Shown piece after piece: positions 4,369 to 35,690 of a stretch of DNA of 43,095 nt. This stretch comes from Bacillus sp. ISL-37 (GTDB lineage: Bacteria > Bacillota > Bacilli > Bacillales > Cytobacillaceae). The stretch is taken from the NCBI RefSeq assembly GCF_018613315.1, contig NZ_JAGGQL010000029.1, positions 98,426 through 141,520 of the forward strand. Reading direction: 5' to 3'. The notes beneath the pieces were generated by a model, which saw only the letters and a list, made by a program, of their open reading frames with translations, was not told the origin of the DNA and did not search any database. The stretch's first letter is position 1, and the number at the start of each line of letters is the position of its first letter. A program made the translations under genes and the position numbers.

Positions 4369-4478
4369 TATTGGCGGTTTTCACAAATTTATTGGCGAAA
4401 ATCGATTTTTATTGGCGGAGTTCACATATTTATTGGCGATTTCAGGAATTTATTGGCGAAAATCAAAATTTATTGGCG
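4369..4478 (+). repeat. array A: six TATTGGCG units at 20/21-bp period
   Basis: The core TATTGGCG begins at 4369, 4390, 4410, 4431, 4451 and 4471, a spacing of 21, 20, 21, 20, 20. Units with a GGnnTTCACA continuation (GGAGTTCACA or GGTTTTCACA) are 21 bp; units continuing GAAAATC or GATTTC are 20 bp. The mixed 20/21 spacing excludes a coding explanation. The array lies in the gap between the binding-protein and ATPase genes of one operon. The same unit types recur at 24806-24926 and 35514-35690. Confidence 0.9.
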
Positions 4479-4511
4479 AATTGGAAATTTCACGCGTTTT
4501 TTTCCAGTTCA
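4477..4511 (+). repeat. array A end hairpin, shared with array C
   Basis: Directly after the last core is an imperfect inverted repeat, GAATTGGAAA ... TTTTTCCAGTTC. It aligns at 28 of 34 positions with the perfect hairpin at 35481-35515. In both places the hairpin sits at the same end of the TATTGGCG array relative to the core's orientation. Confidence 0.7.
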
Positions 4512-4522
4512 ATTAGACCATA

Positions 4523-4563
4523 CAAAGCAGACACTCTCAAAACCAAGGAGAGTGTCTGCTTTG
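4523..4563 (+). promoter_or_regulatory. 16-bp perfect hairpin before the ATPase gene
   Basis: CAAAGCAGACACTCTC (4523-4538) pairs perfectly with GAGAGTGTCTGCTTTG (4548-4563) around a 9-base loop. No T run follows on either strand, so it is not a typical terminator. It ends about 10 bases before the AGGGAGGTGG ribosome binding site. A role in mRNA processing or stability between the binding-protein and ATPase cistrons is inference. Confidence 0.7.
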
Positions 4564-4589
4564 CAGATTGATAGGGAGGTGGAACCCGG

Positions 4590-6086
4590 ATGAAACTTCA
4601 AATGAAAAACATCAGCATTGATTTTCCGGGAGTGCGTGCACTGAATGGTGTGGATTTCAGCACGGAAACTGGCAGGATCCATGCGTTGATTGGCGCAAAT
4701 GGCGCTGGTAAATCGACATTGATGAAGGTGCTTTCTGGTGCCCATGACCACTACACAGGGGAAATCCAGCTGGATGGAGAAAAGGTGGGAATAAGGACGC
4801 CGGCCGATGCGCAGAAACTCGGAATCCAAACGGTCTACCAGGAGGTTGACACAGCAATCATACCGTCGCTGACTGTGGCTGAAAATATCATGCTCAACCA
4901 GACGGTGCAAGAGATGGAAAACAAGCACTGGTTCAAATGGAAGCAGCTTTTCAAAGAGGCTGAGGAGATTCTTTCTGGCATGAACCTCAAGATTCCTGTT
5001 AGAAAGTTGGCTGGAGAACTGTCGCTTGCCGAGAAACAGCTCGTCCTCATTGCCCGAGCGATTTCAAGTAAATGTTCATTCCTGATCCTTGATGAGCCAA
5101 CCGCTCCTCTCAGCCACACCGAAACATCTGAATTGTTCCGAATCACGAGAGAGCTCGCGAAAAGGAATGTGGGCATCATCTTCATCTCCCATCGAATGCC
5201 GGAAATCTTTGAATTGTGCGATGAGATTACCATCATGCGAAATGGCGAGCTGGTCGTGAAAAAAGCTATTTCTGAAGTCGACACTCACCAGGTGATTGAA
5301 TATATGCTTGGCCGGAAGCTGGAAGACCAATTCCCGGCAAGGGTCAGCACGTTCGGGGACCTCCTGCTGAAAGTCGAAGGTTTAACTGATGGAGACAAAG
5401 TGAAGAATACTTCCCTGCATGTAAAAGCAGGGGAGATTGTCGGTCTTGCCGGCTTGGTCGGAGCAGGAAAGACAGAGCTGTGCAAAGCACTGTTTGGCGC
5501 GTCACCAACAACGAGTGGAACTATAAAGCTAAAAGGAAAACCCATTAAGCTTACGAGTCCTCATGCTGCTGTAAAAAGCGGATTGGCCCTGGTGCCCGAA
5601 GAGCGGCGCAAGGAAGGTGTGCTTGTCGCTGAATCTGTTGCCTCCAATCTTACGGCGGTCAACCTCAAAAAGTTCACCAAATTACTAGGCTTTATCAACA
5701 GACGGGCAGAAAGGAAAACGGCCCAGGAGTACATAAAAGCCCTCGGCATCAAGACACCATCGGAAACGGCCAAAGTTGAAAATCTCTCAGGCGGAAACCA
5801 GCAGAAGGTAGCGATTGGCAGGTGGCTGATTGCCGATGCAGATGTGTATATCTTTGATGAGCCAACAAAGGGCGTGGATGTAGGCGCGAAGCGGGATATA
5901 TTTGAGCTTATTGCCAAGCTTGCTGCTGAGGGGAAGGGTATCATTTATGCATCCTCGGAGCTGTCAGAGATCGTCGGCATCACGAATCGGGTTTACGTGC
6001 TCTATGACGGTGAACCTGTCAAAGAGCTTGAAACAGGCGCAACAACAGAAGAAGAACTTTTATTTTACTCAACAGGAGGAAGATAG
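4590..6086 (+). CDS. sugar ABC transporter ATP-binding protein (two ATPase domains)
   Basis: 498 residues with two ABC ATPase domains in tandem, the RbsA/MglA layout. Domain 1 has Walker A GANGAGKST (~35-43), signature ELSLAEKQ and Walker B FLILDEPTAPLS. Domain 2 has the usual altered Walker A GLVGAGKTE, signature LSGGNQQKVAIGRWL and Walker B VYIFDEPTKGVDVG. The family normally runs ~490-510 residues, so the length is complete. The start follows GGGAGGTGG. It energises import of the ligand captured by the upstream lipoprotein through the permease that starts one base after its stop. It shares the S-box transcript. Confidence 0.95.
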   Translation: MKLQMKNISIDFPGVRALNGVDFSTETGRIHALIGANGAGKSTLMKVLSGAHDHYTGEIQLDGEKVGIRTPADAQKLGIQTVYQEVDTAIIPSLTVAENIMLNQTVQEMENKHWFKWKQLFKEAEEILSGMNLKIPVRKLAGELSLAEKQLVLIARAISSKCSFLILDEPTAPLSHTETSELFRITRELAKRNVGIIFISHRMPEIFELCDEITIMRNGELVVKKAISEVDTHQVIEYMLGRKLEDQFPARVSTFGDLLLKVEGLTDGDKVKNTSLHVKAGEIVGLAGLVGAGKTELCKALFGASPTTSGTIKLKGKPIKLTSPHAAVKSGLALVPEERRKEGVLVAESVASNLTAVNLKKFTKLLGFINRRAERKTAQEYIKALGIKTPSETAKVENLSGGNQQKVAIGRWLIADADVYIFDEPTKGVDVGAKRDIFELIAKLAAEGKGIIYASSELSEIVGITNRVYVLYDGEPVKELETGATTEEELLFYSTGGR

Positions 6087-6087
6087 G

Positions 6088-7092
6088 ATGGAAGCGAAAC
6101 TCCCATTGCAGCAAGAGCCAACGCCAAAAAAGCCATTCGAACTGTTCCAGTTCCTATATAAATATGGGACGATTTTGACAATTTTCGTCCTGGTCGCCAT
6201 CTTCGCGGCAGTGAATCCTTCTTTTATCAACGGTGATAATGTCATTAATATCTTGCGTTCGATTTCCATTGTAACAATCATCGCGATTGGCATCACCATC
6301 TCGCTGACAGTTGATGGCTTTGATTTATCTGTCGGCTCTGTCGCATCCCTGTCCAACGCCATCGTCATTTCTATGTTCGTCTGGTTCTCGCAGAACACTC
6401 TGATTGCCGTATTATCAGCGATCGCAGCCGCTTTGATTGTAGGAGCACTCAATTCATTGATGATCGTAAAGCTGAAGATTCCGGATATGCTGATGACACT
6501 GGCGATGATGTTCATCATCCAGGGAACGGCGCTGACTTATACGAAAGGCGCGACGGTTTCGGAAAATATGATTCTGCCTGATGGCAGTTTTTCAACAGGA
6601 ACGATCAGCCCGTTTTTTGCTAAAATAGGGCAGGTTCCATGGATTATCCTGATTATGGCGATCGCTGTCATAGTTGTCCACATTTTCCTGACGTACACCA
6701 AGCACGGCCGTTATATGTATGTGATTGGCGGCAATAAAGAAGCGGCCAGGCTTTCCGGTATCCCGGTCAACCGCTATAAAACAGCTGCCTATCTGCTATC
6801 TGCTTTATTCGCGGCAATCGGCGGGATTGTATTGGCCTCCCGCGTCATGACTGCCGAAATCAATGCAGGTTCCCCTTATCTAATGGATTCGGTAGCTGCT
6901 GCTTTCATTGGTTTTTCCGTCCTGGGAGCAGGCAAGCCGAATGCATTCGGTACCTTTGTCGGGGCCGTGCTGATTGGCATCCTGCAAAATGGTCTTGTGA
7001 TGATGTCTGTCCCTTATTATGCGATGGATATCGTGAAGGGAACCGTGCTGGCATTTGCCCTGGGGATTACTTATTACAAGCAAAAACACTAG
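6088..7092 (+). CDS. sugar ABC transporter permease (RbsC type)
   Basis: 334 residues from ATG 6088, chosen because AGGAGGA lies 7 bases upstream and the ATPase stop is one base before. An in-frame extension back to 5902 would overlap the ATPase and is rejected. The protein is mostly hydrophobic, with about 8-10 membrane helices, and contains the branched-chain/ribose permease family stretch GITISLTVDGFDLSVGSVA, a close match to RbsC-family permeases. A single short permease implies a homodimeric channel. It is the third gene of the S-box operon and is followed by a terminator. Confidence 0.94.
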   Translation: MEAKLPLQQEPTPKKPFELFQFLYKYGTILTIFVLVAIFAAVNPSFINGDNVINILRSISIVTIIAIGITISLTVDGFDLSVGSVASLSNAIVISMFVWFSQNTLIAVLSAIAAALIVGALNSLMIVKLKIPDMLMTLAMMFIIQGTALTYTKGATVSENMILPDGSFSTGTISPFFAKIGQVPWIILIMAIAVIVVHIFLTYTKHGRYMYVIGGNKEAARLSGIPVNRYKTAAYLLSALFAAIGGIVLASRVMTAEINAGSPYLMDSVAAAFIGFSVLGAGKPNAFGTFVGAVLIGILQNGLVMMSVPYYAMDIVKGTVLAFALGITYYKQKH

Positions 7093-7135
7093 AGAGCAGT
7101 TACATACGATGTCGGTTTGGAAATGAAACGGTCAC

Positions 7136-7168
7136 CAGGATATAGAATATTTCTATATCCTGTTTTAT
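7136..7168 (+). terminator. terminator of the sugar ABC operon
   Basis: CAGGATATAGAA (7136-7147) pairs with TTCTATATCCTG (7151-7162), followed by TTTTATT. It lies about 45 bases after the permease stop. Confidence 0.85.
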
Positions 7169-7226
7169 TGTGAAGGAAAATTAGAATCTGGGAAGAAGTA
7201 TAAAGGTAAATGGTTTTGGAGGAGGG

Positions 7227-7649
7227 ATGAGAATTTACGGCAAGACCTTTATTTATATAGGTGAATGGCTATTGTTTTTAATTGCCCTTTTTTATAATCT
7301 AACCCTTCAACTAATATTTCTGGGAAACATCGTTCTGGTTGACAAGAATGAAGAAGCTGCATCTTTTCCATTCAGCTATTCACTCATTGTAGTTATACTT
7401 GGGATTTTGTTCTATTTTTACATAAAGCATCTCCAAGGGAGCCGTAGATACCGGAAAGTCAAGGAGGTCATATGGGGGTTATTTTTCACGGCCACTGCAG
7501 TCAGCAGCCTGTTTTGGTTTTCGGTGAATGCGGTAGTTTATTCACAAGAATTGCTGAGTAATCAAGTACTACTTACCATCATATTTATAGTGTCCGCCAT
7601 GCTGGCAGTTCAAATAGCGATTAAATACAAAAGGGAAGGCTCAGACTAA
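7227..7649 (+). CDS. hypothetical four-helix membrane protein
   Basis: 140 residues with start ATG 7227 after GGAGGAGGG. Four hydrophobic segments lie at roughly 8-37, 50-68, 82-104 and 113-132, separated by short basic loops such as GSRRYRKVK near 72-79. No recognisable motif or family was identified. It is a single-gene unit on the plus strand, converging on the FNT channel gene and sharing the terminator hairpin at its stop. Function unknown. Confidence 0.75.
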   Translation: MRIYGKTFIYIGEWLLFLIALFYNLTLQLIFLGNIVLVDKNEEAASFPFSYSLIVVILGILFYFYIKHLQGSRRYRKVKEVIWGLFFTATAVSSLFWFSVNAVVYSQELLSNQVLLTIIFIVSAMLAVQIAIKYKREGSD

Positions 7650-7664
7650 AAATCTGAGCCCTTT
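7634..7664. terminator. shared terminator between convergent genes
   Basis: GGCTCAGA (7638-7645) pairs with TCTGAGCC (7653-7660), flanked by AAAGGG and CCCTTTA. The stop of the 7227-7649 gene lies in the loop, and the minus-strand FNT gene ends at 7666, so the hairpin can serve both. Confidence 0.75.
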
Positions 7665-7665
7665 A

Positions 7666-8445
7666 TCATTCCTCAAAAAATGGTTTGTTCGCATAGTAAT
7701 ACATCCAGCCCATCATGATTCCACCGCCAATCAGGTTGCCAATCGTCACGGGTATCAGGTTGTGAATCACGCCTGGAAAAGTAACAGATTGCGGGTCGTC
7801 AAGGACCATGCTGATCGCAAAGGTGCACATATTGGCGATGCTGTGTTCATAGCCCGAAATGAAGAAGCAATAGACGAAAAACACCATTGCGAACATTTTT
7901 GCTCCGTCGCCCTTCATCGACATCGGCAGGAAGAACGCAAGGCAGACGAGCCAGTTACAAAGAATTCCCCTGAAAAAAAGTTCTGAAGTTGGTGCAAGTG
8001 TCTTTTTCTCAGCAACACTTAGCAAGAATCCGTTCACGGAATGATCATCAAACAATCCTGTTGTGTAAATCAAAAATGCAAACGCAGCTGCGCCAATGAT
8101 ATTGCCGATATAGCTGTAAATCCACATCCTGGCCACCTGCAGCCAGGCCATTTTTTTTCGCAGAGCTGCAAACGTATAATAAAAGGTGTTTCCTGTAAAC
8201 AGGTCTCCTCCGCCATAGGCAATCAGGATAATCGCGGCACCGAATGTAATGGCAGCTATGGGGTAGGCAAAGGGTGAGTGTTCTACATAAAATGGATTTC
8301 CCGTCTTGAACGCAACAATCACACCAAAGCCGATGAACATAGAAGCCAGGGCAGCCCTGGCCAGATAGCGTGTTTTACTTTGTTTAAAAATTTTGTACTT
8401 TTTTAAGGCCAGTTTTTCGACCTCCTGCAAGGCTTGAACTTCCAA
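7666..8445 (-). CDS. formate/nitrite transporter (FNT) family channel
   Basis: 259 residues with about six membrane helices and the FNT hallmarks: the Omega-loop-type segment GGGDLFTGN near residue 78, the CNWLVCLA helix near 163, and the GYEHSIANM segment containing the family's central conserved His. The start is a TTG at 8443-8445 with GGTGAT upstream; no ATG fits the N-terminal amphipathic helix. The family conducts formate, nitrite or hydrosulfide. A siroheme nitrite reductase operon is encoded 11 kb away, so a nitrite role is possible, but sequence alone does not separate NirC from FocA types. It is monocistronic on the minus strand. Confidence 0.9.
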   Translation of the reverse strand: MEVQALQEVEKLALKKYKIFKQSKTRYLARAALASMFIGFGVIVAFKTGNPFYVEHSPFAYPIAAITFGAAIILIAYGGGDLFTGNTFYYTFAALRKKMAWLQVARMWIYSYIGNIIGAAAFAFLIYTTGLFDDHSVNGFLLSVAEKKTLAPTSELFFRGILCNWLVCLAFFLPMSMKGDGAKMFAMVFFVYCFFISGYEHSIANMCTFAISMVLDDPQSVTFPGVIHNLIPVTIGNLIGGGIMMGWMYYYANKPFFEE

Positions 8446-8673
8446 ATAAAATCACCCGAGTTTCCGTATGTAATATGAACCTATTCTTCCTCTAAATCTC
8501 ATTCATATGTAAATGGTTCCCTCAGGCAACGGTTAAAAAACAGTAATGTGAATAATTCTTCCATCTGAATAAAAACTGGCAGTGGCAGGAGTCGTTTAAT
8601 TGGAACATGTGACGATCGGAAATTTTTGATATAAACTTCTGACTTGCTTTTACTTGGATTTGACTCTTAATAA

Positions 8674-8706
8674 GTAAAGAAGACTGAATCACTAGGATCC
8701 AGTCTT
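8674..8706. terminator. terminator downstream of the MFS gene
   Basis: AAGACTG and CAGTCTT arms enclose a GATC-containing loop, with T runs on the plus-strand side and CTTT on the minus side. It lies 15-45 bases past the minus-strand MFS stop. Confidence 0.65.
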
Positions 8707-8720
8707 TTTCCGTTTTATTT

Positions 8721-9935
8721 TTAAAAAGTATCTCTAACGAACTGGGGATTGCGCTGCATCGAGGCAAACAGGACAAATCCGCTCACCAGCAGGAGTCCGC
8801 TTGTCAGTACGAATACCGAGGTGAAACCAAAGTATCCCGCAAGGAAACCGCCAAGCACTGGACCGACAATGTTTCCGAAGAAACGGAGACTCGTGTTGTA
8901 GCCGAGTACTTCTCCCTGCATGGCAACAGGTGCTTCCTGCCTGATATAAGCCACCCTGACAGGGATGATGCCGCCAATGGTGATTCCTAGGAGGAACCTG
9001 ATTAAGACGAGCTGCCAGATGTTACCGACAAAACCGCCAGGCAGATAGATGATCGCTGATAAAAACAGGAGTACGACAAGTATTTTAATATAGCCAACCC
9101 GGTCGGCAATTTGGCCCCATTTCCGGGCCATTAACAAATTGCCAAGCCCCGCTGCCGAAAAGGCGATTCCAGAAAAGAATGCCAGGTTTTCCGGACCATG
9201 CAGCTCTCCCACATATAGTGAAAGGATTGGCTGGATACTGAAATGAGCAATCTGCACAAGCATCGACATGAGCAGGACATTGACCATGATTGGATTTTTA
9301 AAAATATGCTGAAGAACCTCTTTGCGGCTGTAATTTGTTTTTGTTCCTTTCTTGATATCGACTCTGTACTCCATGACAAAGAATACGAGCAGACCAGAAA
9401 GGACGATGAATGCTGAGGTTGATTGGAAGGTTGTCGCATATCCTAAGGTGTCAGCAAGAACCCCGCCAAGCATTGGGCCGAGCAATGAGCCTGTAATACT
9501 GCCTGTCTGCAGTGTTCCTAATACTTTGCCTGCTTCTTCCTTCGAAGTTTGCGTTGAAATAAGCGCCTGTGATACAGGAATGAAGCCAGAGAATAATCCC
9601 ATGAACATTCTCAGTAAAAATAACTCCCACACCGAAGTTGCAAATCCTAATAGAAAGACGGCTAAGCCCATCCCGATTCCCATAAAAATCAGGATTCTCT
9701 TGCGTCCGAACCGGTCGCCCATTCTTCCAATTACAGGTGAAAATAGAAAGGCAGTTACGAACGTAATACTGAACGTCAGGCCTGACCAGTTTTGGACATA
9801 CCTTTCTGAAAAGTCGCCAAAAGTTTCGATGTACAATGAGAGAAAAGGCATTACCATTGTCATGCTGCCGGCAATGAAGAAATTTGCGAACCACATGATC
9901 ATCAAGTTGCGTTTCGCCTTTTGCTGCTGGGTCAT
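8721..9935 (-). CDS. MdtG-like MFS efflux transporter
   Basis: 404 residues from ATG 9935. An upstream in-frame TTG at 10022 lies in an inverted repeat and is rejected. Twelve membrane helices are predicted, with the MFS signature GRMGDRFGRKR after helix 2 and LGTLQTGSITGSLLGPMLGG in helix 5 as in drug:H+ antiporters. The overall pattern (SGLTFSITF, SQALISTQ, NTSLRFFGNIVGP) resembles E. coli MdtG. It probably exports drugs or metabolites, using proton influx. The ribosome binding site is modest (GAAGTG 8 bases upstream). It lies 100 bases downstream of the co-oriented VOC gene but has its own promoter and palindrome, so it may be transcribed separately. The substrate is not predictable. Confidence 0.9.
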   Translation of the reverse strand: MTQQQKAKRNLMIMWFANFFIAGSMTMVMPFLSLYIETFGDFSERYVQNWSGLTFSITFVTAFLFSPVIGRMGDRFGRKRILIFMGIGMGLAVFLLGFATSVWELFLLRMFMGLFSGFIPVSQALISTQTSKEEAGKVLGTLQTGSITGSLLGPMLGGVLADTLGYATTFQSTSAFIVLSGLLVFFVMEYRVDIKKGTKTNYSRKEVLQHIFKNPIMVNVLLMSMLVQIAHFSIQPILSLYVGELHGPENLAFFSGIAFSAAGLGNLLMARKWGQIADRVGYIKILVVLLFLSAIIYLPGGFVGNIWQLVLIRFLLGITIGGIIPVRVAYIRQEAPVAMQGEVLGYNTSLRFFGNIVGPVLGGFLAGYFGFTSVFVLTSGLLLVSGFVLFASMQRNPQFVRDTF

Positions 9936-9997
9936 TCCATCAACACTTCTTTCTCGGAACGAATATTTCGCTTTTCTAAATATTGTACCAAATTTTT

Positions 9998-10020
9998 GCT
10001 CGATTGAAAACCAATCGAGC
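9998..10020 (-). promoter_or_regulatory. palindromic operator candidate at the MFS promoter
   Basis: GCTCGATTG (9998-10006) and CAATCGAGC (10012-10020) form perfect 9-bp arms around 5 bases. No T run follows on either strand, so a terminator is unlikely. On the minus strand a TACAAT -10 begins 17 bases after TTTTCA, which lies inside the palindrome, so a repressor here would block the -35 region. The repressor is not identified. Confidence 0.55.
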
Positions 10021-10037
10021 AAGCAGAGACCACTACT

Positions 10038-10412
10038 TTAGCTTTTTACCCATTCGAGCAATTCAATTCTATTCCCAAATGGATCATGGACATAAATCCT
10101 ATTCGCACCTGGAAGCTTGTCATCTACAATAAAATCAATCCCTGAAACCGATAAATGCTGTTTCAATTCCTCAATATCCTCAATTTCAAACGCTGGATGC
10201 GCTTTGCGTGCAGGTACAAATGGTTCCTCAATCCCGATATGAATTTGACAATTTCCATACTGGAACCATGCTCCGCCTCGCATTTTCAACTCTGCCGGCT
10301 TTTCGATTTCTTCAAAACCCAATACGTCTCCGAAAAATCTCCTGGCCTGCTCTTCTGATCCCTTAGGTGCTGCCAGCTGAACATGATCAATTGCTTTAAA
10401 TTTAAATGCCAT
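10038..10412 (-). CDS. VOC (glyoxalase/dioxygenase fold) family protein
   Basis: 124 residues, the length of a single VOC module with two beta-alpha-beta-beta-beta halves. Likely metal ligands are His10 (AIDHVQ), His58 (CQIHIG) and the Glu of NRIELLE near 118. The C-terminal IYVHDPFGNRIELLE is the common ending of glyoxalase-like proteins. The ATG at 10412 follows a GGGAGGGG site. These small enzymes act on diverse electrophiles (methylglyoxal, antibiotics, ring-cleavage substrates); nothing here fixes the substrate. Co-orientation with the efflux gene could suggest a detoxification pairing, but the two are separated by a separate promoter. Confidence 0.88.
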   Translation of the reverse strand: MAFKFKAIDHVQLAAPKGSEEQARRFFGDVLGFEEIEKPAELKMRGGAWFQYGNCQIHIGIEEPFVPARKAHPAFEIEDIEELKQHLSVSGIDFIVDDKLPGANRIYVHDPFGNRIELLEWVKS

Positions 10413-10583
10413 ATGCAGTCCCCTCCCTAGTAAAATCTTAATCTAAAAGGAAACATAAGGAAATAACAAGGAATGAATCTCTAAATATAAGTTTTTCTTA
10501 TCAATGTAAAAAGTAATACAAGCCTGTCTGAATACATATAAATTATTAAAGTTTGCACGTTTTTAAAAGAGGGGGCAATCGGA

Positions 10584-11405
10584 ATGAAAAAAAGATTTCT
10601 TGGTATCGCGATGATGGCAATCATGGCGCTTATAGTGTCGGCATGCGGTACAAGCAATTCAGGAGGAACAGGATCCGAAGATGAAAAGAAGGAGCTAAGG
10701 GTGGTCACGGACGCAGCGTATGCGCCATTTGAGTACATGGAAGGGGACAAGATTGTTGGTTTCGATATTGACTTTCTAAAAGCTGCCGCGAAGGAAGCCG
10801 GGTATGAGCTGAAGATCGAGAATGTCGGCTGGGATCCGATTTTTGTTGAGATCAAGAGCAAGCGAGCTGATCTGGCTGTATCATCGATCTCAATCAATGA
10901 TGAGCGCAAACAGACCTATGATTTTTCTTTGCCATATTTCTTATCCACCAATAAAATCCTTGTCCGTGAAGACAGTGATATTAAAAGCGCTGCTGATCTA
11001 AAAGGCAAGGTAGTGGCGGTCCAAAATGGCACAACCGGGCAAGCAGCGATGGATAAGCTCCTCGGCAAGAATAACGAGGATATCAAAAAATTTGATAATA
11101 ACAACCTGGCAATCATGGAAATGCTCTCGGGCGGTGCAGATGCAGTTGTTGCGGATAACGGTGTTGTCGAAGTATATGCAAAAAATAACCCAAAAGAAAA
11201 ACTGAAGGTCATTGAAGACAGCGGCAGCTTCGAGGCGGAATACTATGGAATCCTGTTCCCGAAAGGCACAGATCTGAAGGCAGACTTCGATAAAGCAATC
11301 AAGAAAATCGTCGAGAATGGAACGTATGAAAAAATCTATCAAGAATGGTTCGGCCAGGAGCCAAACATGGAAATGCTGAAGGCGGAACAAGAAGCATCAG
11401 AGTAA
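10584..11405 (+). CDS. polar amino-acid ABC transporter substrate-binding lipoprotein
   Basis: 273 residues; lipoprotein signal MKKRFLGIAMM... with lipobox VSAC and Cys21. The SBP_bac_3 family pattern is clear: VVTDAAYAPFEYMEGDKIVGFDIDF near 41, then DLAVSSISINDERKQTYDFS, then DLKGKVVAVQNGTTGQ. The start follows GAGGGGGCAA. Together with the downstream permease and ATPase it forms an importer of the ArtPQ(R)/GlnHPQ class for polar amino acids; the specific amino acid cannot be assigned. A terminator right after the stop separates it from the permease, suggesting more binding protein than membrane components is made. Confidence 0.92.
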   Translation: MKKRFLGIAMMAIMALIVSACGTSNSGGTGSEDEKKELRVVTDAAYAPFEYMEGDKIVGFDIDFLKAAAKEAGYELKIENVGWDPIFVEIKSKRADLAVSSISINDERKQTYDFSLPYFLSTNKILVREDSDIKSAADLKGKVVAVQNGTTGQAAMDKLLGKNNEDIKKFDNNNLAIMEMLSGGADAVVADNGVVEVYAKNNPKEKLKVIEDSGSFEAEYYGILFPKGTDLKADFDKAIKKIVENGTYEKIYQEWFGQEPNMEMLKAEQEASE

Positions 11406-11432
11406 TTTCATGTAAACAATTAATCATCGAAG

Positions 11433-11470
11433 ATGCGTAACACTTAAAAACAGCGTTACGCATTTTTTTG
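11433..11470 (+). terminator. intra-operon terminator after the binding-protein gene
   Basis: ATGCGTAAC (11433-11441) pairs perfectly with GTTACGCAT (11455-11463), followed by seven T residues. Lying between the binding-protein and permease genes, it probably limits read-through into the latter. Confidence 0.88.
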
Positions 11471-11474
11471 TAGA

Positions 11475-11580: not shown

Positions 11581-11683
11581 CGATTCCTTTTAGATGCAAG
11601 AAATGTTCGAAAAGCAACAATCAATGTGATTATAAACTTCATCAAAATCTAGTCCCAGGCCTGGGGGTTTTGGAGGGCAAGCT

Positions 11684-16391: not shown

Positions 16392-16517
16392 TTATTTCTC
16401 AAAAATACTGTTGGAAAGAAGTCGGAACAGATAATCGGTATGATCGCGGAAACCAGCTTCGAGGCCGATCATTGTAACGTCCTTATCCTGTTCTTTCACG
16501 ATGACTGCCTTACCCTT
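16392..16517 (-). pseudogene. orphaned C-terminus of the M14 carboxypeptidase
   Basis: In the frame one base off from the upstream ORF, a 41-residue continuation begins KGKAVIVKEQDKDVTMIG and ends SNSIFEK before a TAA at 16392. It directly continues the sense of the upstream protein (NNGEA / KGKAVIV). One missing base between 16517 and 16520, such as one A in a CAAAGGG run, would explain the break. It may be real or a sequencing error. Confidence 0.75.
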
Positions 16518-24805: not shown

Positions 24806-24926
24806 CACTAATAAAATTGTGAATATCGCCAATAAAGTTGTGAACTCCGCCAATAAATTATTATTTTCGCCAATAAAACTGTGAACTCCGCCAATAAAAT
24901 ATAATTCGCAGTCAACATCGCCAATA
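24806..24926 (-). repeat. array B: TATTGGCG units (minus orientation), 20/21-bp period
   Basis: Reverse-complement cores (CGCCAATA) begin at 24827, 24848, 24868 and 24889, spaced 21, 20, 21. A degenerate unit CACTAATA is in phase at 24806, and another core at 24919 is 30 bp further. The TATTGGCGGAGTTCACA unit type is identical to arrays A and C. Located between sirB and sirC; the last core is 4 bases before the sirC ribosome binding site. Confidence 0.9.
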
Positions 24927-29002: not shown

Positions 29003-29281
29003 TCTTTCACCTCCTTTCAAAGCGGTATTCTATCTTCCGAAATAGCATTCTGGTTTTTAAACCTCTTTTTGTCGGTTTTTGAAGAACTTTATAACAAACC
29101 GTTCTTTTAACCTACCAGGCTATTTAAAAAGATGTGTAAAGACCCGCTACGATTTACCTTTCTTTTTGGTACTTATTAATTGGTGTGGAAAATTAATGGA
29201 ATTATTCTTACTTGCCCTTTTATAAAAAAGGAGTAGAATGTTAGTTATGCTTTAACCGTTTAAATGAAAGAAGGAAACAAC

Positions 29282-30199
29282 ATGAAAAATCTTCGAATCT
29301 ATTTAATCCTTACAGGCGTCATGTTTTTGTGGGGAATGAATGTAACGGCTCTAAAAATTATAGTAGGGAATTTCCCGCCAATCACCATCACCTCGCTCCG
29401 CGTCTTCACGGCTGGAGTCTCGGTGTTTATCATTCTATTTTTCTTGAAAAAAGTACGGCTGCCATCCAGGCAGGAGTGGAAATATATATTAGGCGGGGCA
29501 ATCCTGAATGTCACTGGCCACCATTTATTCCTTGGCATTGGTTTAAAAGTGACATCCGCTGTTAACGGTGGACTGATCCTCGGTATGGGACCATTGCTGA
29601 CTGCTTTGATGGCGATTTTATTCCTGGGGAAACGGCTGACATTCATACGGACACTCGGTTTTATCTTCGGAGGGATTGGCGTCTCATTGACTGTGATGGC
29701 AGGTAGTGCTGGAGTTTCAGGCATGTCGATTGGCGACTTTTATGTATTTCTTTCCATTCTTTCACAGGCGATCAGCTTCATCATCATCTCCAAAGCAGCG
29801 AAAACTCTCGATCCACGTCTGTTAACGGGATATATGCTGATCTTCGGTTCAATCCTGATGTTTTTCATCGGACTGTGGAAGGAGCCAAGTGGATTAACAA
29901 GCTTAGGAAGTGCTTCGATTGGGGTATGGAGCGTGTTTTTCGCATCAGCGATTTTCGCCACGGCAGTAGGGCATATGCTCTACAATTACGCAATCGGCAA
30001 GGCCGGACCGGCGGAAGCATCCATATTCCTGAACCTGAATACATTCCTTTCAATCTTGTTCGCAGCCATCTTCCTCGGGGAGAATATTACATCCTCACAC
30101 CTTTTGGGACTGATTTTCATTGTTTCCGGTGTCATCTTCGGTTCAGGAGCGCTCGAGGAGCTGGTTCTAAGAAACAAGATGAAACGGAACGCAGCTTAA
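29282..30199 (+). CDS. EamA/DMT family transporter
   Basis: 305 residues from ATG 29282, where AAGAAGGAAAC precedes; the in-frame ATG at 29264 has no ribosome binding site. Ten membrane helices in two EamA halves are predicted, with the typical first-helix MFLWGMNVTALK and the second-half VGHMLYNYAIGKAGPAEASIFLNLNTFLSILFAAIFLGE. These proteins export metabolites or amino acids; the substrate is not predictable. Monocistronic, terminator follows. Confidence 0.9.
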   Translation: MKNLRIYLILTGVMFLWGMNVTALKIIVGNFPPITITSLRVFTAGVSVFIILFFLKKVRLPSRQEWKYILGGAILNVTGHHLFLGIGLKVTSAVNGGLILGMGPLLTALMAILFLGKRLTFIRTLGFIFGGIGVSLTVMAGSAGVSGMSIGDFYVFLSILSQAISFIIISKAAKTLDPRLLTGYMLIFGSILMFFIGLWKEPSGLTSLGSASIGVWSVFFASAIFATAVGHMLYNYAIGKAGPAEASIFLNLNTFLSILFAAIFLGENITSSHLLGLIFIVSGVIFGSGALEELVLRNKMKRNAA

Positions 30200-30211
30200 T
30201 ATTGAATTTTG

Positions 30212-30238
30212 ATGCAGGGCTTATGCTCTGCATTTTTT
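30212..30238 (+). terminator. terminator of the DMT transporter gene
   Basis: ATGCAG-GGC and GCT-CTGCAT arms around TTAT, followed by TTTTTTAT. Confidence 0.8.
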
Positions 30239-30280
30239 ATGGCTAAAAAAACCCAACTAGTATTAAAATGATTTTAAGGT

Positions 30281-30378
30281 CCAACGGGAATAAATGAGCT
30301 TCAACAGGGATTAAATTCGAACCAAAGGGGATTAAATTTGATTCAACTGGGATTAAAACCAATCCAACGGAGATAAAG
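30281..30378 (+). repeat. array D: GGGATTAAA units at 21-bp period
   Basis: Cores GGGAATAAA, GGGATTAAA (three times) and GGAGATAAA begin at 30286, 30307, 30328, 30349 and ~30369, each preceded by CAAC or CAAA. Spacing is 21, 21, 21 and 20. The core is different from arrays A-C. Lies between the DMT terminator and the sigma-54 promoter of the SDR gene. Confidence 0.85.
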
Positions 30379-30436
30379 CGTTCATTGTAGTGAAAAATTT
30401 CCACAAGAAACAGGCTGGCTGGACGGAACTCTCCAA

Positions 30437-30475
30437 GTGTCCATTTATCCATGAAAGTGTCCTGATACTGGACAA
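30437..30475 (+). promoter_or_regulatory. candidate upstream activator sites for the SDR promoter
   Basis: GTGTCC occurs at 30437 and 30457, and GGACAA at 30470 makes an inverted pair with the second (7-base gap). They are 45-80 bases upstream of the -24 element. The same GTGTCC motif is upstream of the other sigma-54 promoter (35765, 35778). The activator at 33429-35477 is the likely binder (inference). Confidence 0.45.
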
Positions 30476-30516
30476 CTTCTCTCTTATATACTCTTGATTT
30501 TCATGCTAAACAGACC

Positions 30517-30531
30517 TGGCACGATTCTTGC
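30517..30531 (+). promoter_or_regulatory. sigma-54 (-24/-12) promoter of the SDR gene
   Basis: TGGCAC (30517-30522), 5 bases, TTGC (30528-30531): a full match to the TGGCAC-N5-TTGC consensus. GG and GC are at the correct 12-bp interval; the start is predicted near 30543, about 33 bases before the ATG. Confidence 0.88.
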
Positions 30532-30575
30532 TTTATATAAAACTAATAATTTTATAAAAGTGGAGGTCAAACAAA

Positions 30576-31343
30576 ATGAAAATGAGTGAAGCAAGAGCGA
30601 TTGTTACAGGCGGAGCGTCTGGGTTGGGGGAGGCGACTGTCAGGAGGATTGTAGGGCAAGGGGGGAAGGCTGCAATCCTTGATTTGTCAGTAGAACGCGG
30701 GAAGGCACTCGTAAAAGAGCTTGGGGAACAGACCGTTTTCATCAATACAGATGTAACTAGCGAGGAAGAGGTATCGAATGCGATCAACAAAGCGATTGAA
30801 TCATTCGGATTAATTAACACGGTTGTTAACTGTGCTGGGATTGGCGTAGCGGGCAAGCTGTTATCACGAAAAGGTGTCCATTCCCTGGACATGTTTTCAA
30901 AAGTAATTTCCATCAACTTGATCGGAACCTTCAATGTCATCAGGCTTGCTTCAGAGCAGATGTCAAAAAACGAAGCGAATGAACTTGGTGAGCGGGGCGT
31001 CATCATTAATACAGCATCTGTTGCCGCCTTTGACGGCCAAATCGGGCAAGCTGCCTACAGTGCTTCAAAGGGCGGGGTTGTTGGAATGACGCTGCCAATT
31101 GCAAGGGAGCTTGCTGCTTATGGTATCCGTGTCATGACAGTTGCACCAGGACTTTTCCATACGCCGATGTTCGACTCGCTGCCTGAAGAAGCAAGGGACT
31201 CGCTTGGTAAAATGGTGCCGTTCCCGCAACGGCTCGGTTATCCCGAGGAATACGCCCAGCTAGCTGACAGCATCCTGACAAATCCAATGCTCAATGGCGA
31301 AACAATCCGACTGGATGGAGCCATCCGCATGCAGCCGAAATAA
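30576..31343 (+). CDS. short-chain dehydrogenase, type-2 3-hydroxyacyl-CoA dehydrogenase-like
   Basis: 255 residues of the classical SDR fold: cofactor motif TGGASGLG (11-18), NCAGIG (~85-90), and catalytic Ser148, Tyr161 and Lys165 (YSASK). The features [30 protein letters not shown] and [17 protein letters not shown] closely match HSD17B10-type 3-hydroxyacyl-CoA / 2-methyl-3-hydroxybutyryl-CoA dehydrogenases, which oxidise straight- and branched-chain 3-hydroxyacyl-CoA with NAD+. The RBS is GTGGAGG. Driven by a sigma-54 promoter, and placed next to an acyl-CoA catabolism locus that lacks another such dehydrogenase. Confidence 0.93.
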
Positions 31344-31352
31344 GTCTGAAGC

Positions 31353-31386
31353 AAGCCCTTTCGCCCAAGGATGAAAGGGCTTTTTT
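31353..31386 (+). terminator. terminator of the SDR gene
   Basis: AAGCCCTTTC (31353-31362) pairs with GAAAGGGCTT (31373-31382), followed by TTTTTT. Confidence 0.9.
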
Positions 31387-31476
31387 ATGGTAAAATTTTC
31401 GCGTTGTTGAAATTCCAAAAAACGAATATGATATTTTTGCAATATAACAATTTAAGAGAGAGCAGGGACAACTAGA

Positions 31477-33306
31477 GTGACAACGAAATTTATTAGAATT
31501 TTTATGCTTATATTCCTGGCAGCTGCAGCTTCCTTCCCGCAGTTCGCATCTGCGATGGCGGAAGTGACTTCCTTCAGCCAGTCGACAGGAACGGTTGCAT
31601 ATCAAGGGAACGCTGCCCCTGGATACGTTACTTTTGAACTGAAAACAAGTGAACCAACACGTGGGTACATTTTAGCAGTGGGCAATGGTATCCAGACAAA
31701 AATCAACCTTTCTACCATGGATTATAAAACCACCCATAAAGTGGACTGGGTGCCATGGGATGATACGAAGAAAACTCCATTGCCAGCTGGGGAATACCAG
31801 CTAAAGGCTTATTTGACAGACCAAGGGTACAACCAGATGCAGGGTTATCCGCTTGGCAAACTGACAGTTGTGGCGGAGGCTAATCCGAAGCCATTGATTG
31901 ACAAGGTTTCAATCAATCCTGATGTCTTCGCTCCAAAATACGGCGGAGCGTCAACAGTTCAGATTCCTTTCAATTTGAACCGTCCAGCAGAAGTCCAGTT
32001 AAGTATCTGGCAAAATGGTGCCGAAGTTTTTGCAGGCAGTAAAATGAAGCTATTGTCTGGCAGCCATACAGTTAGCTGGAATGGAACAGATAAAAGTGGA
32101 AGAATGGTTCAAGATGGAGCCTATGAGATTCACTTCAAGTATATTGAAACAGCATACAACTATCCTGCCACCACACAATCAGCCCAGAAAGCTGGAACGG
32201 TTACCATCAAGGATGGCGATTATAACATCCCGTTATGGAGACTAAAACAAGTAGTTACGAATGCTGTCTTCACTTCTGAAACAATCAGCCCAGATGGTGA
32301 CGGTGTTAACGACACTGTTACAGGTCAATTTACATTAGCAGAGCCTGCAAAAGTTTCAGTTTACATTGCGAACGCCGCAGGCGCACATATGAAAAATGTT
32401 GTTACCGAGCAGTCATTCCAGGCGGGAACTCATACTTTTGCATGGGATGGAACTGACTTTATGGGAGGCAAAGCGGTTAACGGAAACTATTATATTAAAG
32501 TAATGGTGATTGAAGGAACGAGTGCAGGCTATATCTCTTTTACAGACTCAGTGCGGTTTGAAGGCGGCTATGAGTTTAAAGCACTCCAGCCTGAAAAACG
32601 TGTCAGGGTGATTGAAGAAACAGCAAAGCTTTCTGTGTATCCAATGGACCAGGGCTATACTGCTGTAAAAGGTGATACCTTCCCGCTAATGTCTGAAATA
32701 ATCGAGAATGGAAAGTATCAGGTACTTGTAAAGGAAGGTGTGTTAGGAACAATAAATGTAAGCGATGTTGAGCTTGTTGTCGAAACAGTTTCACCGGCAT
32801 TTCCAAACACTGCAGAATACACTGTAGTGAGTGGTGACACTCTTTGGAAAATTGCAGCTAAATTCAACACGACAATTTCTGAAATTGTTACTCTGAACAA
32901 CCTTGATCCAAATAAATACTTGTATATCGGTCAAAAGCTAAAAGTACCGGCGACTGTTTCTCCTGAACCAGCAGCACAGCCTGTTATCCATACGGTTCAA
33001 TCAGGTGATACTCTCTGGAAGATTGCTCAAAAGTATGGCACAACAATTGACGCCATCGTAAAGGCGAACAATCTTGACCTAGCTAAATACCTGTATATCG
33101 GCCAAAAGCTTACGATTCCATCTTCAACCTCAACAACTCCGGAACCGCCGGCTGTCCAGCCTGTCATCCACACAGTTGTGAGCGGTGACACGCTTTGGAA
33201 AATTAGTGTCAAATATGGCACGACAATTGATGCAATCGTAAAAGAGAATAATCTCGACCCGGCCAGGTACTTGTATATTGGTCAAAAGCTTACGATTCCA
33301 CGCTAG
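31477..33306 (+). CDS. secreted FlgD-Ig / SH3-like / triple-LysM cell-wall protein
   Basis: 609 residues from a GTG start at 31477 (AGCAGGGA upstream). Signal peptide to ~residue 26. Three FlgD/Ig-like beta modules cover ~30-365 (SHTVSWNGTDKSGRMVQDGAYEI, TISPDGDGVNDTVTGQFTL, THTFAWDGTDFMGGKAVNG). An SH3-like segment lies at ~372-430, then three LysM domains (VVSGDTLWKIAAKFNTT..., VQSGDTLWKIAQKYGTT..., VVSGDTLWKISVKYGTT...) to the end. LysM domains bind peptidoglycan, so the protein should sit on the cell wall. No catalytic domain was seen. It lies between the SDR and the activator gene without obvious metabolic relation to them. Confidence 0.88.
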   Translation: MTTKFIRIFMLIFLAAAASFPQFASAMAEVTSFSQSTGTVAYQGNAAPGYVTFELKTSEPTRGYILAVGNGIQTKINLSTMDYKTTHKVDWVPWDDTKKTPLPAGEYQLKAYLTDQGYNQMQGYPLGKLTVVAEANPKPLIDKVSINPDVFAPKYGGASTVQIPFNLNRPAEVQLSIWQNGAEVFAGSKMKLLSGSHTVSWNGTDKSGRMVQDGAYEIHFKYIETAYNYPATTQSAQKAGTVTIKDGDYNIPLWRLKQVVTNAVFTSETISPDGDGVNDTVTGQFTLAEPAKVSVYIANAAGAHMKNVVTEQSFQAGTHTFAWDGTDFMGGKAVNGNYYIKVMVIEGTSAGYISFTDSVRFEGGYEFKALQPEKRVRVIEETAKLSVYPMDQGYTAVKGDTFPLMSEIIENGKYQVLVKEGVLGTINVSDVELVVETVSPAFPNTAEYTVVSGDTLWKIAAKFNTTISEIVTLNNLDPNKYLYIGQKLKVPATVSPEPAAQPVIHTVQSGDTLWKIAQKYGTTIDAIVKANNLDLAKYLYIGQKLTIPSSTSTTPEPPAVQPVIHTVVSGDTLWKISVKYGTTIDAIVKENNLDPARYLYIGQKLTIPR

Positions 33307-33313
33307 TTCAGAG

Positions 33314-33343
33314 CCTGCTCCTCATTTGGGAGCAGGTTTTTTT
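33314..33343 (+). terminator. terminator of the LysM protein gene
   Basis: CCTGCTCC (33314-33321) pairs with GGAGCAGG (33329-33336), followed by TTTTTTT. Confidence 0.9.
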
Positions 33344-33428
33344 ACGTCCAAAGTGTACCTTTGTCTAACAGTGCTTTATAATTGAAGTTATAATATTCAG
33401 AAATCTCTCGTTTAGAGGAGGGAAATGA

Positions 33429-35477
33429 TTGATTGAATTCAAGGATATTGTGACTCCTGTCGACTGCGAGGTCACGGATGAAACAACATTGCGAGACGCG
33501 CTTGAAATTTTTAAAAAGAAGAAGTGGAATCTGCTGCCGGTGACAGATGCCGAACAGAATTTACAGGGTGTTTTTACCCGGAGCGGACTTTATCAGATGG
33601 TTCTCGATGGCAGTCCGCTGGATGCACCAATCCAGACATACATAAAAAAGCAAGCAAGATCAATCCGGATTGATACCCCTTACCGGGAAATCGAGCAAAT
33701 TGTAAAAACGAGCAAGGTTGGTACAGGAGTGGTGCTGGATGAGCAAAACAAGGTCATCGGTTTACTGACCAAGACAGACATGGTGGGCGCTCTCTTGAAA
33801 TCTGCGAATACACTCAAGGACCAGCTGGAAACAATCCTGCAGCACTCCAATATCGGGGTCCTCATGACTGACGGCGGGATGCAGGTAGTTTATGCAAATG
33901 AAACTTTTGCCAAAATCAGTGGCCGGTCTATTGATTCAATAATGTCCAGGGCGCTTGACGAGATTTTTCCAGGCTTGCTGAACGAAGGTAATAAGCCTCA
34001 TCATTATGAAAAATTCAAATCGATTCTTCATATCTCTTCCTATGAAACTGTAAATCATGAAGAAGGAAAAATTCTGTTGTTCCAGGATATTTCCGAATTT
34101 GAAAAAATGGCAGAAGAACTGGAGACAGTCAAAAAACTGAAGCTGACAATCGAGACGACGCTCGAGAATGCGTATGATGGAATCCTGATGACCGACGACA
34201 AGAATATGATCACAATGGTCAGCCCTCCGCTGCTCGAACTGTTCAACCTGGAAAAAACAGAAGTTTTGTATAAACCAGTTGATCAAGTACTTCCCCAACT
34301 GAAGCTTGGCAATGTATTTAGTTCGGAAATGGCGGAAGTCAGCGATTTTCACGAAATGAACGGAATAAGGTATATTGTCCATCGAATTCCAATCAAGAAG
34401 GATGGCAAGGTCATCGGAGCGATTGGCAAAGTGATGTTCCGCCAGTTGAATGAGGTTAGCGAGTTGTTCAAGAGACTTCAAAAAGCGGAGAACAAGGCAA
34501 GCTTTTATCATCAGCAGCTGCAGAAATCAGAGTCCGCAAGATTTACGTGGGATCATATATTCAGCAAAGATTCTTATATGGAAAAATTAAAGAAAAGTGC
34601 CGCCAAAGCAGCGAAAGGAAGATCCACAGTTCTGGTCAGGGGAGAAAGCGGGACAGGGAAGGAATTGTTCGCGCATGCCATCCATAACAGCAGTGCCAGG
34701 AGCGATGGCAAGTTTGTTGTCGTCAATTGTGCCGCTATCCCTGAGGACCTGCTCGAATCAGAGTTTTTCGGATATGAAGAAGGTGCCTTTACAGGAGCAA
34801 AGCAGCGCGGCAAAATCGGCAAGTTTGACCTGGCGAATGGCGGGACGCTTTTCCTCGATGAAATCGGCGATATGTCACTCTCCCTCCAGGCAAAACTACT
34901 GAGAGTCCTGCAGGAGCGAGAGTTTTACAGGGTTGGCGGAAATGTCCGGGTGAAGGTCGATGTCCGTATTATCGCAGCGACGAACCGCAATCTGGAAGAG
35001 ATGGTAAAGCAGGGAGAGTTCAGGGAGGACCTATACTATCGCCTGAATGTTATATCGCTGAACATCCCGCCGCTAAGGGAACGCGTGCAGGATGTCGAGT
35101 ATTTGATCACTGGTTTAATGAAAGAATTGAACTCGATGCTGGGAACGAGCATCACGGGTATCTCATCACAGGCAATGACCGCACTCCTACGCTACGGGTG
35201 GCCAGGCAATGTACGAGAACTGAGGAATGTGCTTGAGCGGGCGATGACCTTTGCCGAGCATGGAAAAATTCAAGCTGAGGACCTGCCAGATTATCTAATC
35301 TCGCAACTATCCAGGCCGGTTACCGAACAAATCAGTCTTGCCGAGGGTGCCGAGCTAGGAGCCATCAAAAAAGCCCTTTCCCTGACGAACGGAAACAAGG
35401 CTAAGGCAGCAAGACTGCTGGGTATCAGCCGATCAGGCCTTTATGAAAAAATAAAGAAATATCAGCTGAGCGTTTAG
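33429..35477 (+). CDS. sigma-54-dependent transcriptional activator with CBS and PAS domains
   Basis: 682 residues from a TTG at 33429 with GAGGAGGG upstream; the nearby ATG at 33425 runs into a stop. Order: two CBS motifs (~1-118), PAS (~125-215), second PAS (~235-345), AAA+ sigma-54 interaction domain (Walker A GESGTGKE at 405, GAFTGA at ~452, Walker B GGTLFLDEIGDM, GWPGNVRELRN), and a Fis-type helix-turn-helix (~650-682, AKAARLLGISRSGLYEKIKK). The intact GAFTGA loop shows it can remodel sigma-54 RNA polymerase. CBS domains usually sense adenine nucleotides. It lies between two sigma-54 promoters for acyl-CoA catabolism genes and is the likely local activator of both. Confidence 0.94.
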   Translation: MIEFKDIVTPVDCEVTDETTLRDALEIFKKKKWNLLPVTDAEQNLQGVFTRSGLYQMVLDGSPLDAPIQTYIKKQARSIRIDTPYREIEQIVKTSKVGTGVVLDEQNKVIGLLTKTDMVGALLKSANTLKDQLETILQHSNIGVLMTDGGMQVVYANETFAKISGRSIDSIMSRALDEIFPGLLNEGNKPHHYEKFKSILHISSYETVNHEEGKILLFQDISEFEKMAEELETVKKLKLTIETTLENAYDGILMTDDKNMITMVSPPLLELFNLEKTEVLYKPVDQVLPQLKLGNVFSSEMAEVSDFHEMNGIRYIVHRIPIKKDGKVIGAIGKVMFRQLNEVSELFKRLQKAENKASFYHQQLQKSESARFTWDHIFSKDSYMEKLKKSAAKAAKGRSTVLVRGESGTGKELFAHAIHNSSARSDGKFVVVNCAAIPEDLLESEFFGYEEGAFTGAKQRGKIGKFDLANGGTLFLDEIGDMSLSLQAKLLRVLQEREFYRVGGNVRVKVDVRIIAATNRNLEEMVKQGEFREDLYYRLNVISLNIPPLRERVQDVEYLITGLMKELNSMLGTSITGISSQAMTALLRYGWPGNVRELRNVLERAMTFAEHGKIQAEDLPDYLISQLSRPVTEQISLAEGAELGAIKKALSLTNGNKAKAARLLGISRSGLYEKIKKYQLSV

Positions 35478-35480
35478 GTT

Positions 35481-35515
35481 CGAACTGGAAAAAACACGTG
35501 GTTTTTTCCAGTTCG
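35481..35515 (+). terminator. perfect 15-bp hairpin, terminator and array C end cap
   Basis: CGAACTGGAAAAAAC (35481-35495) pairs perfectly with GTTTTTTCCAGTTCG (35501-35515) around ACGTG. It follows the activator stop by 3 bases and likely ends its transcript, although the T-rich part is inside the stem rather than after it. A related hairpin caps array A at 4477-4511. Confidence 0.7.
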
Positions 35516-35690
35516 CCAATAAATCCTGAAAATCGCCAATAAAATCAAATTATCGCCAATAAACTTGTGAACTCCGCCAATAAAAAAATTAATGTTGCGG
35601 ATAGCACTCTACAAGATTAGAATATCGTCTATAAAATCAGAATATCGTCAATAAAATCAGAACATCGATCAATAAATTTACTGACTCCAC
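35514..35690 (-). repeat. array C: TATTGGCG units (minus orientation), degrading downstream
   Basis: Reverse-complement cores CGCCAATA start at 35514, 35534, 35554 and 35575 (spacing 20, 20, 21), then degenerate versions at ~35596, 35626 (CGTCTATA), 35646 (CGTCAATA) and 35666 (CGATCAATA), still on a ~20-bp grid. The unit at 35575 is the GGAGTTCACA type seen in A and B. Lies between the activator gene and the next sigma-54 promoter. Confidence 0.88.

What the first reader, a model, noticed from the sequence alone, without database searches (positions are those of the whole stretch)
4369..35690. Family of TATTGGCG arrays with 20/21-bp helical period at three loci
Arrays at 4369-4478, 24806-24926 and 35514-35690 use the same core TATTGGCG and the same two unit types: a 21-bp unit continuing GGAGTTCACA and a 20-bp unit continuing GAAAATC/GATTTTCA. 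Spacing is 20 or 21 bp, i.e. two helical turns, so every core lies on one face of DNA. Orientation differs between loci, all in gaps between same-strand genes. The mix of 20 and 21 bp excludes coding. I know of no named element of this form.
Basis: seen in the sequence. Interest (0 to 1): 0.82.

Follow-up and report, generated by a model that had tools for sequence, protein, structure and literature searches.

The report
Helically phased six-site intergenic DNA arrays
Short DNA words repeated about six times at two-helix-turn spacing sit between genes, mostly just behind gene ends, at many places in this soil bacterium and its relatives, and look like landing pads for an unidentified DNA-binding protein.

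Summary
The window's genome has 110 TATTGGCG pairs spaced 18-26 bp; all are 20 or 21 bp apart, with none for the reversed control. Of 50 arrays analysed, 31 have six cores and 46 end in a 31-bp inverted repeat, AACTGGAAA...TTTCCAGTT. The same repeat follows other cores: TATAGCGA (20 bp), ATTCCGCGA (21 bp) and one TTATTCGCAAA-like array. At one orthologous site some species carry class I, others class II. In 19 orthologous pairs from two species, cores differ at 13 of 848 bases, spacers at 168 of 861. No array of 28 lies in a divergent gap, against 23 of 77 array-free gaps. Arrays show no RNA-folding signal but carry A/T patches about every 10 bp. Other cores with the same phasing occur in other genera of the family. 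Best reading: platforms for cooperative, perhaps DNA-wrapping, proteins at ends of transcription units. No protein was identified. A REP/MITE-like selfish repeat remains a serious rival. Nine literature searches showed no description.

The parts
4369..4478 (+). Array 1: six exact TATTGGCG cores, steps 21,20,21,20,20
4479..4509 (+). Terminal inverted repeat of array 1 (AATTGGAAA N13 TTTCCAGTT), flush with the last core
   Evidence: the same left arm and loop start (AATTGGAAATTTCACGCG) stands at the orthologous site in G003, behind a TATAGCGA array
4524..4562 (.). Long perfect stem (AAAGCAGACACTCTC / GAGAGTGTCTGCTTT) between array 1 and the ABC ATPase gene, terminator-like in both directions
   Evidence: my terminator test. 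The built-in scan did not list it
24806..24926 (-). Array 2: five exact cores plus one decayed core (24806-24813), one step of 30 bp; fills the gap between a CbiX-family gene and a SirC-like gene; no hairpin
35514..35582 (-). Array 3: four exact cores, steps 21,20,20 (read on the - strand)
35483..35513 (-). Terminal inverted repeat of array 3 (AACTGGAAAAAACCACGTGTTTTTTCCAGTT)
35583..35690 (-). Decayed further units of array 3 (ATCGTCAATAAA-like), judged by eye
   Evidence: the orthologue in G005 shows a run of exact cores with one unit repeated

Best explanation
The arrays are DNA-level binding platforms, placed mostly at the 3' ends of transcription units. Each 8-bp core is one site for a sequence-specific protein. 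Sites repeat every two helical turns, usually six times, and A/T-rich patches repeat about every turn, so the bound proteins probably stack on one face and wrap or bend about 120 bp. The inverted repeat marks one end of the element, usually the end nearest a gene's stop, and may be a second site or a nucleation point. Shown: conserved cores, constrained spacing, ~10-bp A/T phasing, avoidance of divergent gaps, no RNA-folding signal in the arrays, several core classes. Inferred: the protein, the wrapping, and a role such as local chromosome organiser, supercoil sink or transcription barrier between neighbouring units.
For: Spacing: 110 of 110 own-genome pairs with 18-26 bp spacing are 20 or 21. 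Orthologous arrays in G000 and G018: cores 1.5% changed, spacers 19.5%; 17 of 87 compared spacers changed length, each between 20- and 21-bp units. A/T dinucleotides have 8.1-fold power at 10.0 bp over shuffles; small sets of classes II and III and of other genera peak between 9.5 and 10.5 bp. Predicted curvature 1.194 against 1.099 in shuffles; 15 of 46 arrays exceed 95% of their shuffles. No RNA-folding signal on either strand of the arrays (mean z -0.03 and 0.58, 46 arrays). 0 of 28 arrays in divergent gaps against 23 of 77 array-free gaps of at least 120 bp, Fisher 3.6e-4. A terminator-like stem reading toward the hairpin end beside 31 of 66 elements; on the far side 6 and 2 of 66. De novo survey of 736 kb from other genera of the family: 5 non-coding arrays at 20/21 bp, and none at any other period pair from 12/13 to 40/41 except the overlapping 21/22.
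Against: No protein was identified and no binding shown. Core conservation is partly ascertained, since arrays were found by their cores. Curvature excess is modest (median 11% of shuffles at least as curved). Orientation to transcription is mixed: in the own genome 15 tandem-gap arrays face one way and 6 the other (counted; p = 0.078). On the hairpin side a terminator-like stem on the other strand was also found in 16 of 66. One relative, G007, has none of classes I-III, so these classes are dispensable. Any insertion tolerated only at gene ends would give the same placement.
Confidence: 0.5

Rival explanations
1. A non-coding interspersed repeat (REP-, MITE- or BOX-like), spread by a transposase or recombinase that reads the cores and hairpin, and tolerated at gene ends.
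For: Many copies, a shared end structure behind several core classes, avoidance of divergent gaps, patchy spread in genus g49, different classes in the same slot.
Against: No near-identical paralogues among the own-genome arrays compared: best spacer identity between different sites is 0.80. Position and orientation kept between G000 and G018 for 20 arrays. Spacing stays at 20/21 while spacers drift. No paired terminal repeats or target duplication noticed by eye; no systematic search for them was made.
Confidence: 0.27
2. RNA-level element: a Rho-loading or RNA-binding-protein site read by transcripts that run past the terminator.
For: Arrays near gene 3' ends; in 39 of 50 arrays (two genomes, not independent) a gene reads into the hairpin end, giving CGCCAATAAA-type RNA.
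Against: 11 of 50 arrays are read only in the other sense. No folding signal in arrays. The hairpin itself folds better than shuffles (mean z -2.47 and -2.15), but has no U-run after it, and its third pair shows no compensatory change (C-G 25, T-G 12, C-A 8, T-A 4, others 2 of 51). An RNA site does not explain DNA helical phasing.
Confidence: 0.09
3. Operator arrays of a conventional regulon, controlling the downstream gene.
For: Tandem phased sites are typical of cooperative regulators (recalled); arrays 1 and 2 lie between genes that may form operons.
Against: 0 of 28 in divergent gaps; 7 of 28 in convergent gaps, which have no promoter. The 20 neighbouring proteins scanned share no theme: sugar-binding protein, phosphoglucose isomerase, subtilase, SirC, sodium symporter and others.
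Confidence: 0.06
4. Segregation or replication sites (centromere- or iteron-like arrays on the chromosome).
For: In G010, whose contig begins with a protein I recognise as DnaA (no search made), 10 of 11 class I arrays listed lie within 1.2 Mb of it, p = 0.012. In G018 23 of 26 arrays lie outside 0.82-3.42 Mb, but its origin was not located. Plasmid centromeres and iterons use tandem repeats of this size (recalled).
Against: Only one genome with a placed origin, 20 of its 23 matches listed, and conserved intergenic sites may simply be commoner near the origin. Strand is mixed on both sides.
Confidence: 0.08

Closest known systems
REP / BIME-2 elements of enterobacteria
   Same: Short non-coding repeats, many per genome, intergenic, several types per genome. 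BIME-2 are described as transcription-independent gyrase sites that might contribute to genome organisation (PMC6379681, passages seen).
   Different: REPs are palindromes with a GT(A/G)G head and a cognate tyrosine transposase (PMC2817692, passages seen). Here the unit is a direct repeat phased at 20/21 bp, with one separate terminal inverted repeat.
Plasmid iterons and par centromere arrays (recalled)
   Same: Tandem direct repeats of about 20 bp, roughly two turns apart, bound cooperatively.
   Different: Dispersed at 28 or more chromosomal sites. No plasmid replication or partition protein among the 20 neighbours scanned; one neighbour matches Pfam 'ParA' PF10609, an Mrp/NUBPL-type iron-transfer NTPase.
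bcr repeats of the B. cereus group
   Same: Intergenic repeat families confined to one group of Bacillaceae (recalled; papers seen only in search listings).
   Different: Nothing I saw describes a six-core phased architecture; I did not compare sequences with bcr families.
Phased A-tracts / curved DNA
   Same: A/T patches at the helical period (starts of abstracts seen).
   Different: Here a conserved GC-containing core interrupts the A/T patches every second turn.

Membership tests
REP/BIME | palindromic unit with GT(A/G)G head | tested here: not met
   core and spacer letters; arrays have no folding signal
REP/BIME | cognate REP-associated tyrosine transposase | not tested
REP/BIME | intergenic placement | tested here: met
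   all 28 own-genome arrays read lie in gaps between called genes, 0 divergent (small ORFs overlapping arrays were set aside)
REP/BIME | binds gyrase | not testable with these tools
   needs an experiment
Iteron array | tandem direct repeats about two turns apart | tested here: met
Iteron array | next to a replication gene or origin | tested here: not met
   no replication initiator among the 20 flanking proteins scanned; the other flanks were not scanned
MITE / insertion element | paired terminal inverted repeats and target duplication | tested here: inconclusive
   only one end has the inverted repeat; target duplications were judged by eye only
CRISPR array | long identical repeats with cas genes | tested here: not met
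   8-bp core and A/T-patterned spacers; no cas family among the 20 flanking proteins scanned
Intrinsic terminator | GC-rich stem then U-run | tested here: not met
   the element hairpin has its T-run inside its arm and none after it; a separate terminator-like stem lies beside 31 of 66 elements

The most novel reading that the evidence does not exclude
A family-wide chromosomal architecture system: genus-specific (and often several per genome) phased arrays, each class read by its own paralogous DNA-wrapping protein, standing at ends of transcription units as bacterial insulators. Core classes can replace one another at a fixed site while the terminal inverted repeat stays, like exchangeable addresses on a common platform.
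Probability: 0.25. Interest if true: 0.9.

Novelty: new variant of a known kind. Interest (0 to 1): 0.72.

Why it matters
If the arrays bind protein as their conservation suggests, they offer dozens of natural, countable binding platforms in an ordinary soil bacterium, with natural variation in number, phase and core. That would make it directly testable whether bacteria separate neighbouring transcription units by local DNA wrapping, and could expose a DNA-binding protein family whose specificity changes between genera. Even if the arrays prove selfish, a repeat family that holds its helical phase while its host species diverge needs an explanation.

Tried and rejected
Coding origin: rejected for the Mesobacillus-type arrays with 20-bp steps, which break frame. 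Viral origin: one viral-contig stretch matched, and it is a coding repeat. Known RNA family: no match at the arrays at Rfam's own thresholds. Regulon: 20 neighbours scanned share no function. RNA structure of arrays: no signal. Hairpin as a conserved RNA stem: no compensatory change at the third pair. Single origin of class I at locus 1: the tree needs two changes, though well supported branches force only one. Literature: nine searches listed no paper that describes the arrays; only listings, abstract starts and passages of two papers were seen, one search listed 20 of 277 papers, and subscription journals and preprints are not covered. The single TTCCGCGA at 16444 and the repeat at 39821-40000 were read and set aside.

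Mistakes and dropped data. Loci with minus-strand matches were first read in the wrong direction and redone. In one search the labels of L137, L138 and L139 are shifted; they are G015, G007 and a second copy in G016. The reversed pattern used as control (AGCGAATT) matched 20 of 193 genomes, 18 of them in g49; it looks like another array class there and was no control. Other reversed controls outside the own genome were not all zero: one match (G044), two (G131, G161), eleven in G003, G005, G075 and G078. In the survey the two g49 stretches chosen at known arrays (L262, L266) were left out. The ORF mask is rough: it marked 19 of 56 arrays of the positive set and all three known g49 arrays as coding. 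Twelve G018 array stretches fetched were not analysed. L319 was dropped as lying at an edge.

Full report
Observation. TATTGGCG occurs 18 times in the 43,095-base window against 1.17 expected. It forms three arrays: 4369-4478 (+), 24806-24926 (-) and 35514-35582 (-), the last continuing as decayed units to about 35690.

Whole genome. In the own genome (4,739,322 bases, 62 contigs) the pattern of two cores 18-26 bp apart has 110 matches, none for the reversed control. The narrower 20/21-bp pattern gives the same 110, so every pair in that range is 20 or 21 apart. In the stretches read, 110 of 115 successive gaps of up to 60 bp are 20 or 21 in G000, and 98 of 100 in G018.

Anatomy. I analysed 50 class I arrays with at least three cores: 28 from G000 and 22 from G018 (of 26 seen; the other four were fetched but not analysed). 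Core counts, allowing two mismatches per core: 31 arrays with six, 11 with five, 4 with seven, 2 with four, 2 with three; 264 of 283 cores are exact. At 46 of 50 an inverted repeat, AACTGGAAA-like, 12-13 bases, TTTCCAGTT-like, follows the last core (up to two substitutions allowed). Spacers are not random: in 20-bp units G is at most 2% in the five positions from 9 to 13 of the unit, and an A/T patch lies half a unit away from the TTTAT of the core.

More classes. A search for the inverted repeat alone gave 45 matches in the own genome, 3 in the control. Seven lie on both strands, so there are 38 places. I read the 17 not next to a known class I array: 8 follow TATAGCGA arrays (20 bp), 7 ATTCCGCGA arrays (21 bp), 1 a TTATTCGCAAA-like array, and 1 (L184) no array. 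As these were found through the hairpin, its presence there is by selection. But at the orthologue of array 1, found by its flanking gene, all 13 class II arrays also carry it, some with changes and some arrays decayed (read by eye). Class II gaps: 64 of 20, 3 of 21, 1 of 19, and 9 of 40 or 60; class III: 14 of 21 and 5 of 42.

Spread. Family genomes with three phased cores: class I 24 of 193 (20 of 21 in genus g1, 4 of 61 in g49), class II 18 of 193, all g1, class III 14 of 193 (12 in g1, 2 in g49). Reversed controls were not all zero outside the own genome (listed under Tried and rejected). Class I pairs were absent from one genome each of 40 other genera, g49 not among them. An exact 31-base class I sequence was found in 19 stretches, in records named Mesobacillus subterraneus, M. 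boroniphilus and M. selenatarsenatis, and also Bacillus sp., Cytobacillus oceanisediminis and Chryseobacterium sp.. The window is therefore probably Mesobacillus; its name was not given. In g49 the units of G136, G157 and G167 are longer (CTATTGGCGRATT at 21 bp); the loci read lack the AACTGG repeat; the single G154 array has yet another unit.

Beyond the core. I then looked for arrays without a preset core: seven bases with at least three G or C, one mismatch allowed, at least four units. In 39 stretches (736 kb) from other genera of the family, 7 arrays had a 20/21 period, 5 of them non-coding: G026, G028, G123 (two) and G032. Of the 29 period pairs from 12/13 to 40/41, only 20/21 and the overlapping 21/22 gave non-coding arrays there. 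In 20 stretches (313 kb) of other families there was none at 20/21 and one non-coding at 12/13; in 18 stretches (282 kb) of g49 not chosen at known arrays there was none. The G032 array has six cores, TATCGGCGA or TATCAGCGA, at 20,21,20,21,20. The core of G028, TTAAGCGA, occurs in 3 of 193 family genomes: both g9 genomes and the one g12 genome. Its reversed control, AGCGAATT, matched 20 of 193, 18 in g49, and seems to be one more class. These samples are small, some contigs were short, and the ORF mask is rough.

Evolution. 20 array pairs of G000 and G018 are orthologous by flanks that match at 82-94%. Leaving out array 2, whose structure differs, 19 pairs differ at 13 of 848 core bases and 168 of 861 spacer bases; 17 of 87 spacers changed length. 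At array 1's site class I stands in G000, G005, G006 and G018, and class II in 13 others; G009 has neither, G011 had no match, and the matches in G007 and G015 (66 and 69% identity) look like a paralogue without an array. The hairpin's left arm and loop start are the same in class I G000 and class II G003, so the cores changed while the hairpin stayed. The tree of 18 rows needs two changes of class; well supported branches force one. At array 3's site, by eye, class I arrays stand in G000, G003, G004, G005, G006, G010, G011, G012, G013, G018, G019 and G020, decayed ones in G015 and G017, the last core with its hairpin in G008 and G016, none in G001, G002, G007 and G014; G009 was not resolved. 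Units also duplicate locally, as in G005 there.

Placement. Arrays in G000: 21 in same-strand gaps, 7 convergent, 0 divergent; gaps of at least 120 bp without arrays in the same stretches: 48, 6 and 23 (Fisher 3.6e-4 for divergent). Over both genomes (not independent) the figures are 38, 12 and 0 of 50. Of 30 further rows of other classes and genera, several of them the same array, crude gene calling gave 23 same-strand, 6 convergent, 1 divergent. A terminator-like stem reading toward the hairpin end was found beside 31 of 66 elements; on the same side in the other sense 16, and on the far side 6 and 2. Twenty neighbouring proteins scanned show no common function.

DNA or RNA. Arrays fold no better than shuffles on either strand (mean z -0.03 and 0.58, 46 arrays); the hairpin does (-2.47 and -2.15), but its third pair shows no compensation. 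A/T dinucleotides have 8.1-fold power at 10.0 bp and about 4-fold at 20. The peak recurs in other sets: class II (5 arrays) at 9.5-10, class III (7) at 10.25, g9/g12 (5) at 10.25, g49 (7) at 10.5, and single arrays of g7, g13 and g48 at 10.25, 10 and 10.5. Predicted curvature is moderately raised (1.194 against 1.099; 15 of 46 arrays exceed 95% of their shuffles, none falls below 95% of them); the model's parameters were recalled.

Reading. Fixed phase, protected cores, freer spacers, helix-period A/T patches and mixed orientation to transcription point to a protein that binds duplex DNA cooperatively. Placement at gene ends points to a function, or tolerance, there. The nearest functional analogue is the BIME-2 gyrase site (PMC6379681, passages), but membership in REP/BIME fails on unit structure. 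The selfish-repeat rival is weakened by vertical inheritance and the lack of near-identical copies, not excluded. Nine literature searches listed no description; most subscription papers are not covered.

Noticed in passing
window 39821-40000: 52-bp tandem repeat, about three copies, each with CCAATGAGG ... ATTGGCGCCC, between two same-strand genes; not phased at 20/21 bp.
   Followed up: partly
window 42899-42962 (-): Rfam Bacillaceae-1 RNA match (37.8 bits, cut-off 35).
   Followed up: no
window 3018-3125 (+): SAM riboswitch match (96.8 bits) upstream of the periplasmic-binding-protein gene at 3225.
   Followed up: no
G010:C1:773720-773966: Expanded TATAGCGA array of about a dozen units alternating two spacer types.
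   Followed up: no
L237:8120-8460: Very long, mostly 21-bp array with core GAATGAGGACAT in another genus (g7), with several unit types.
   Followed up: partly
L192 (G136): Two phased array types side by side in g49: CTATTGGCGRATT units and CAATCAGCGAAT units; AGCGAATT arrays matched in 18 g49 genomes through the unplanned control.
   Followed up: partly
L085 and L103: Two array slots 7-8 kb apart with similar unit order in G000 and G018, suggesting an old duplication.
   Followed up: no
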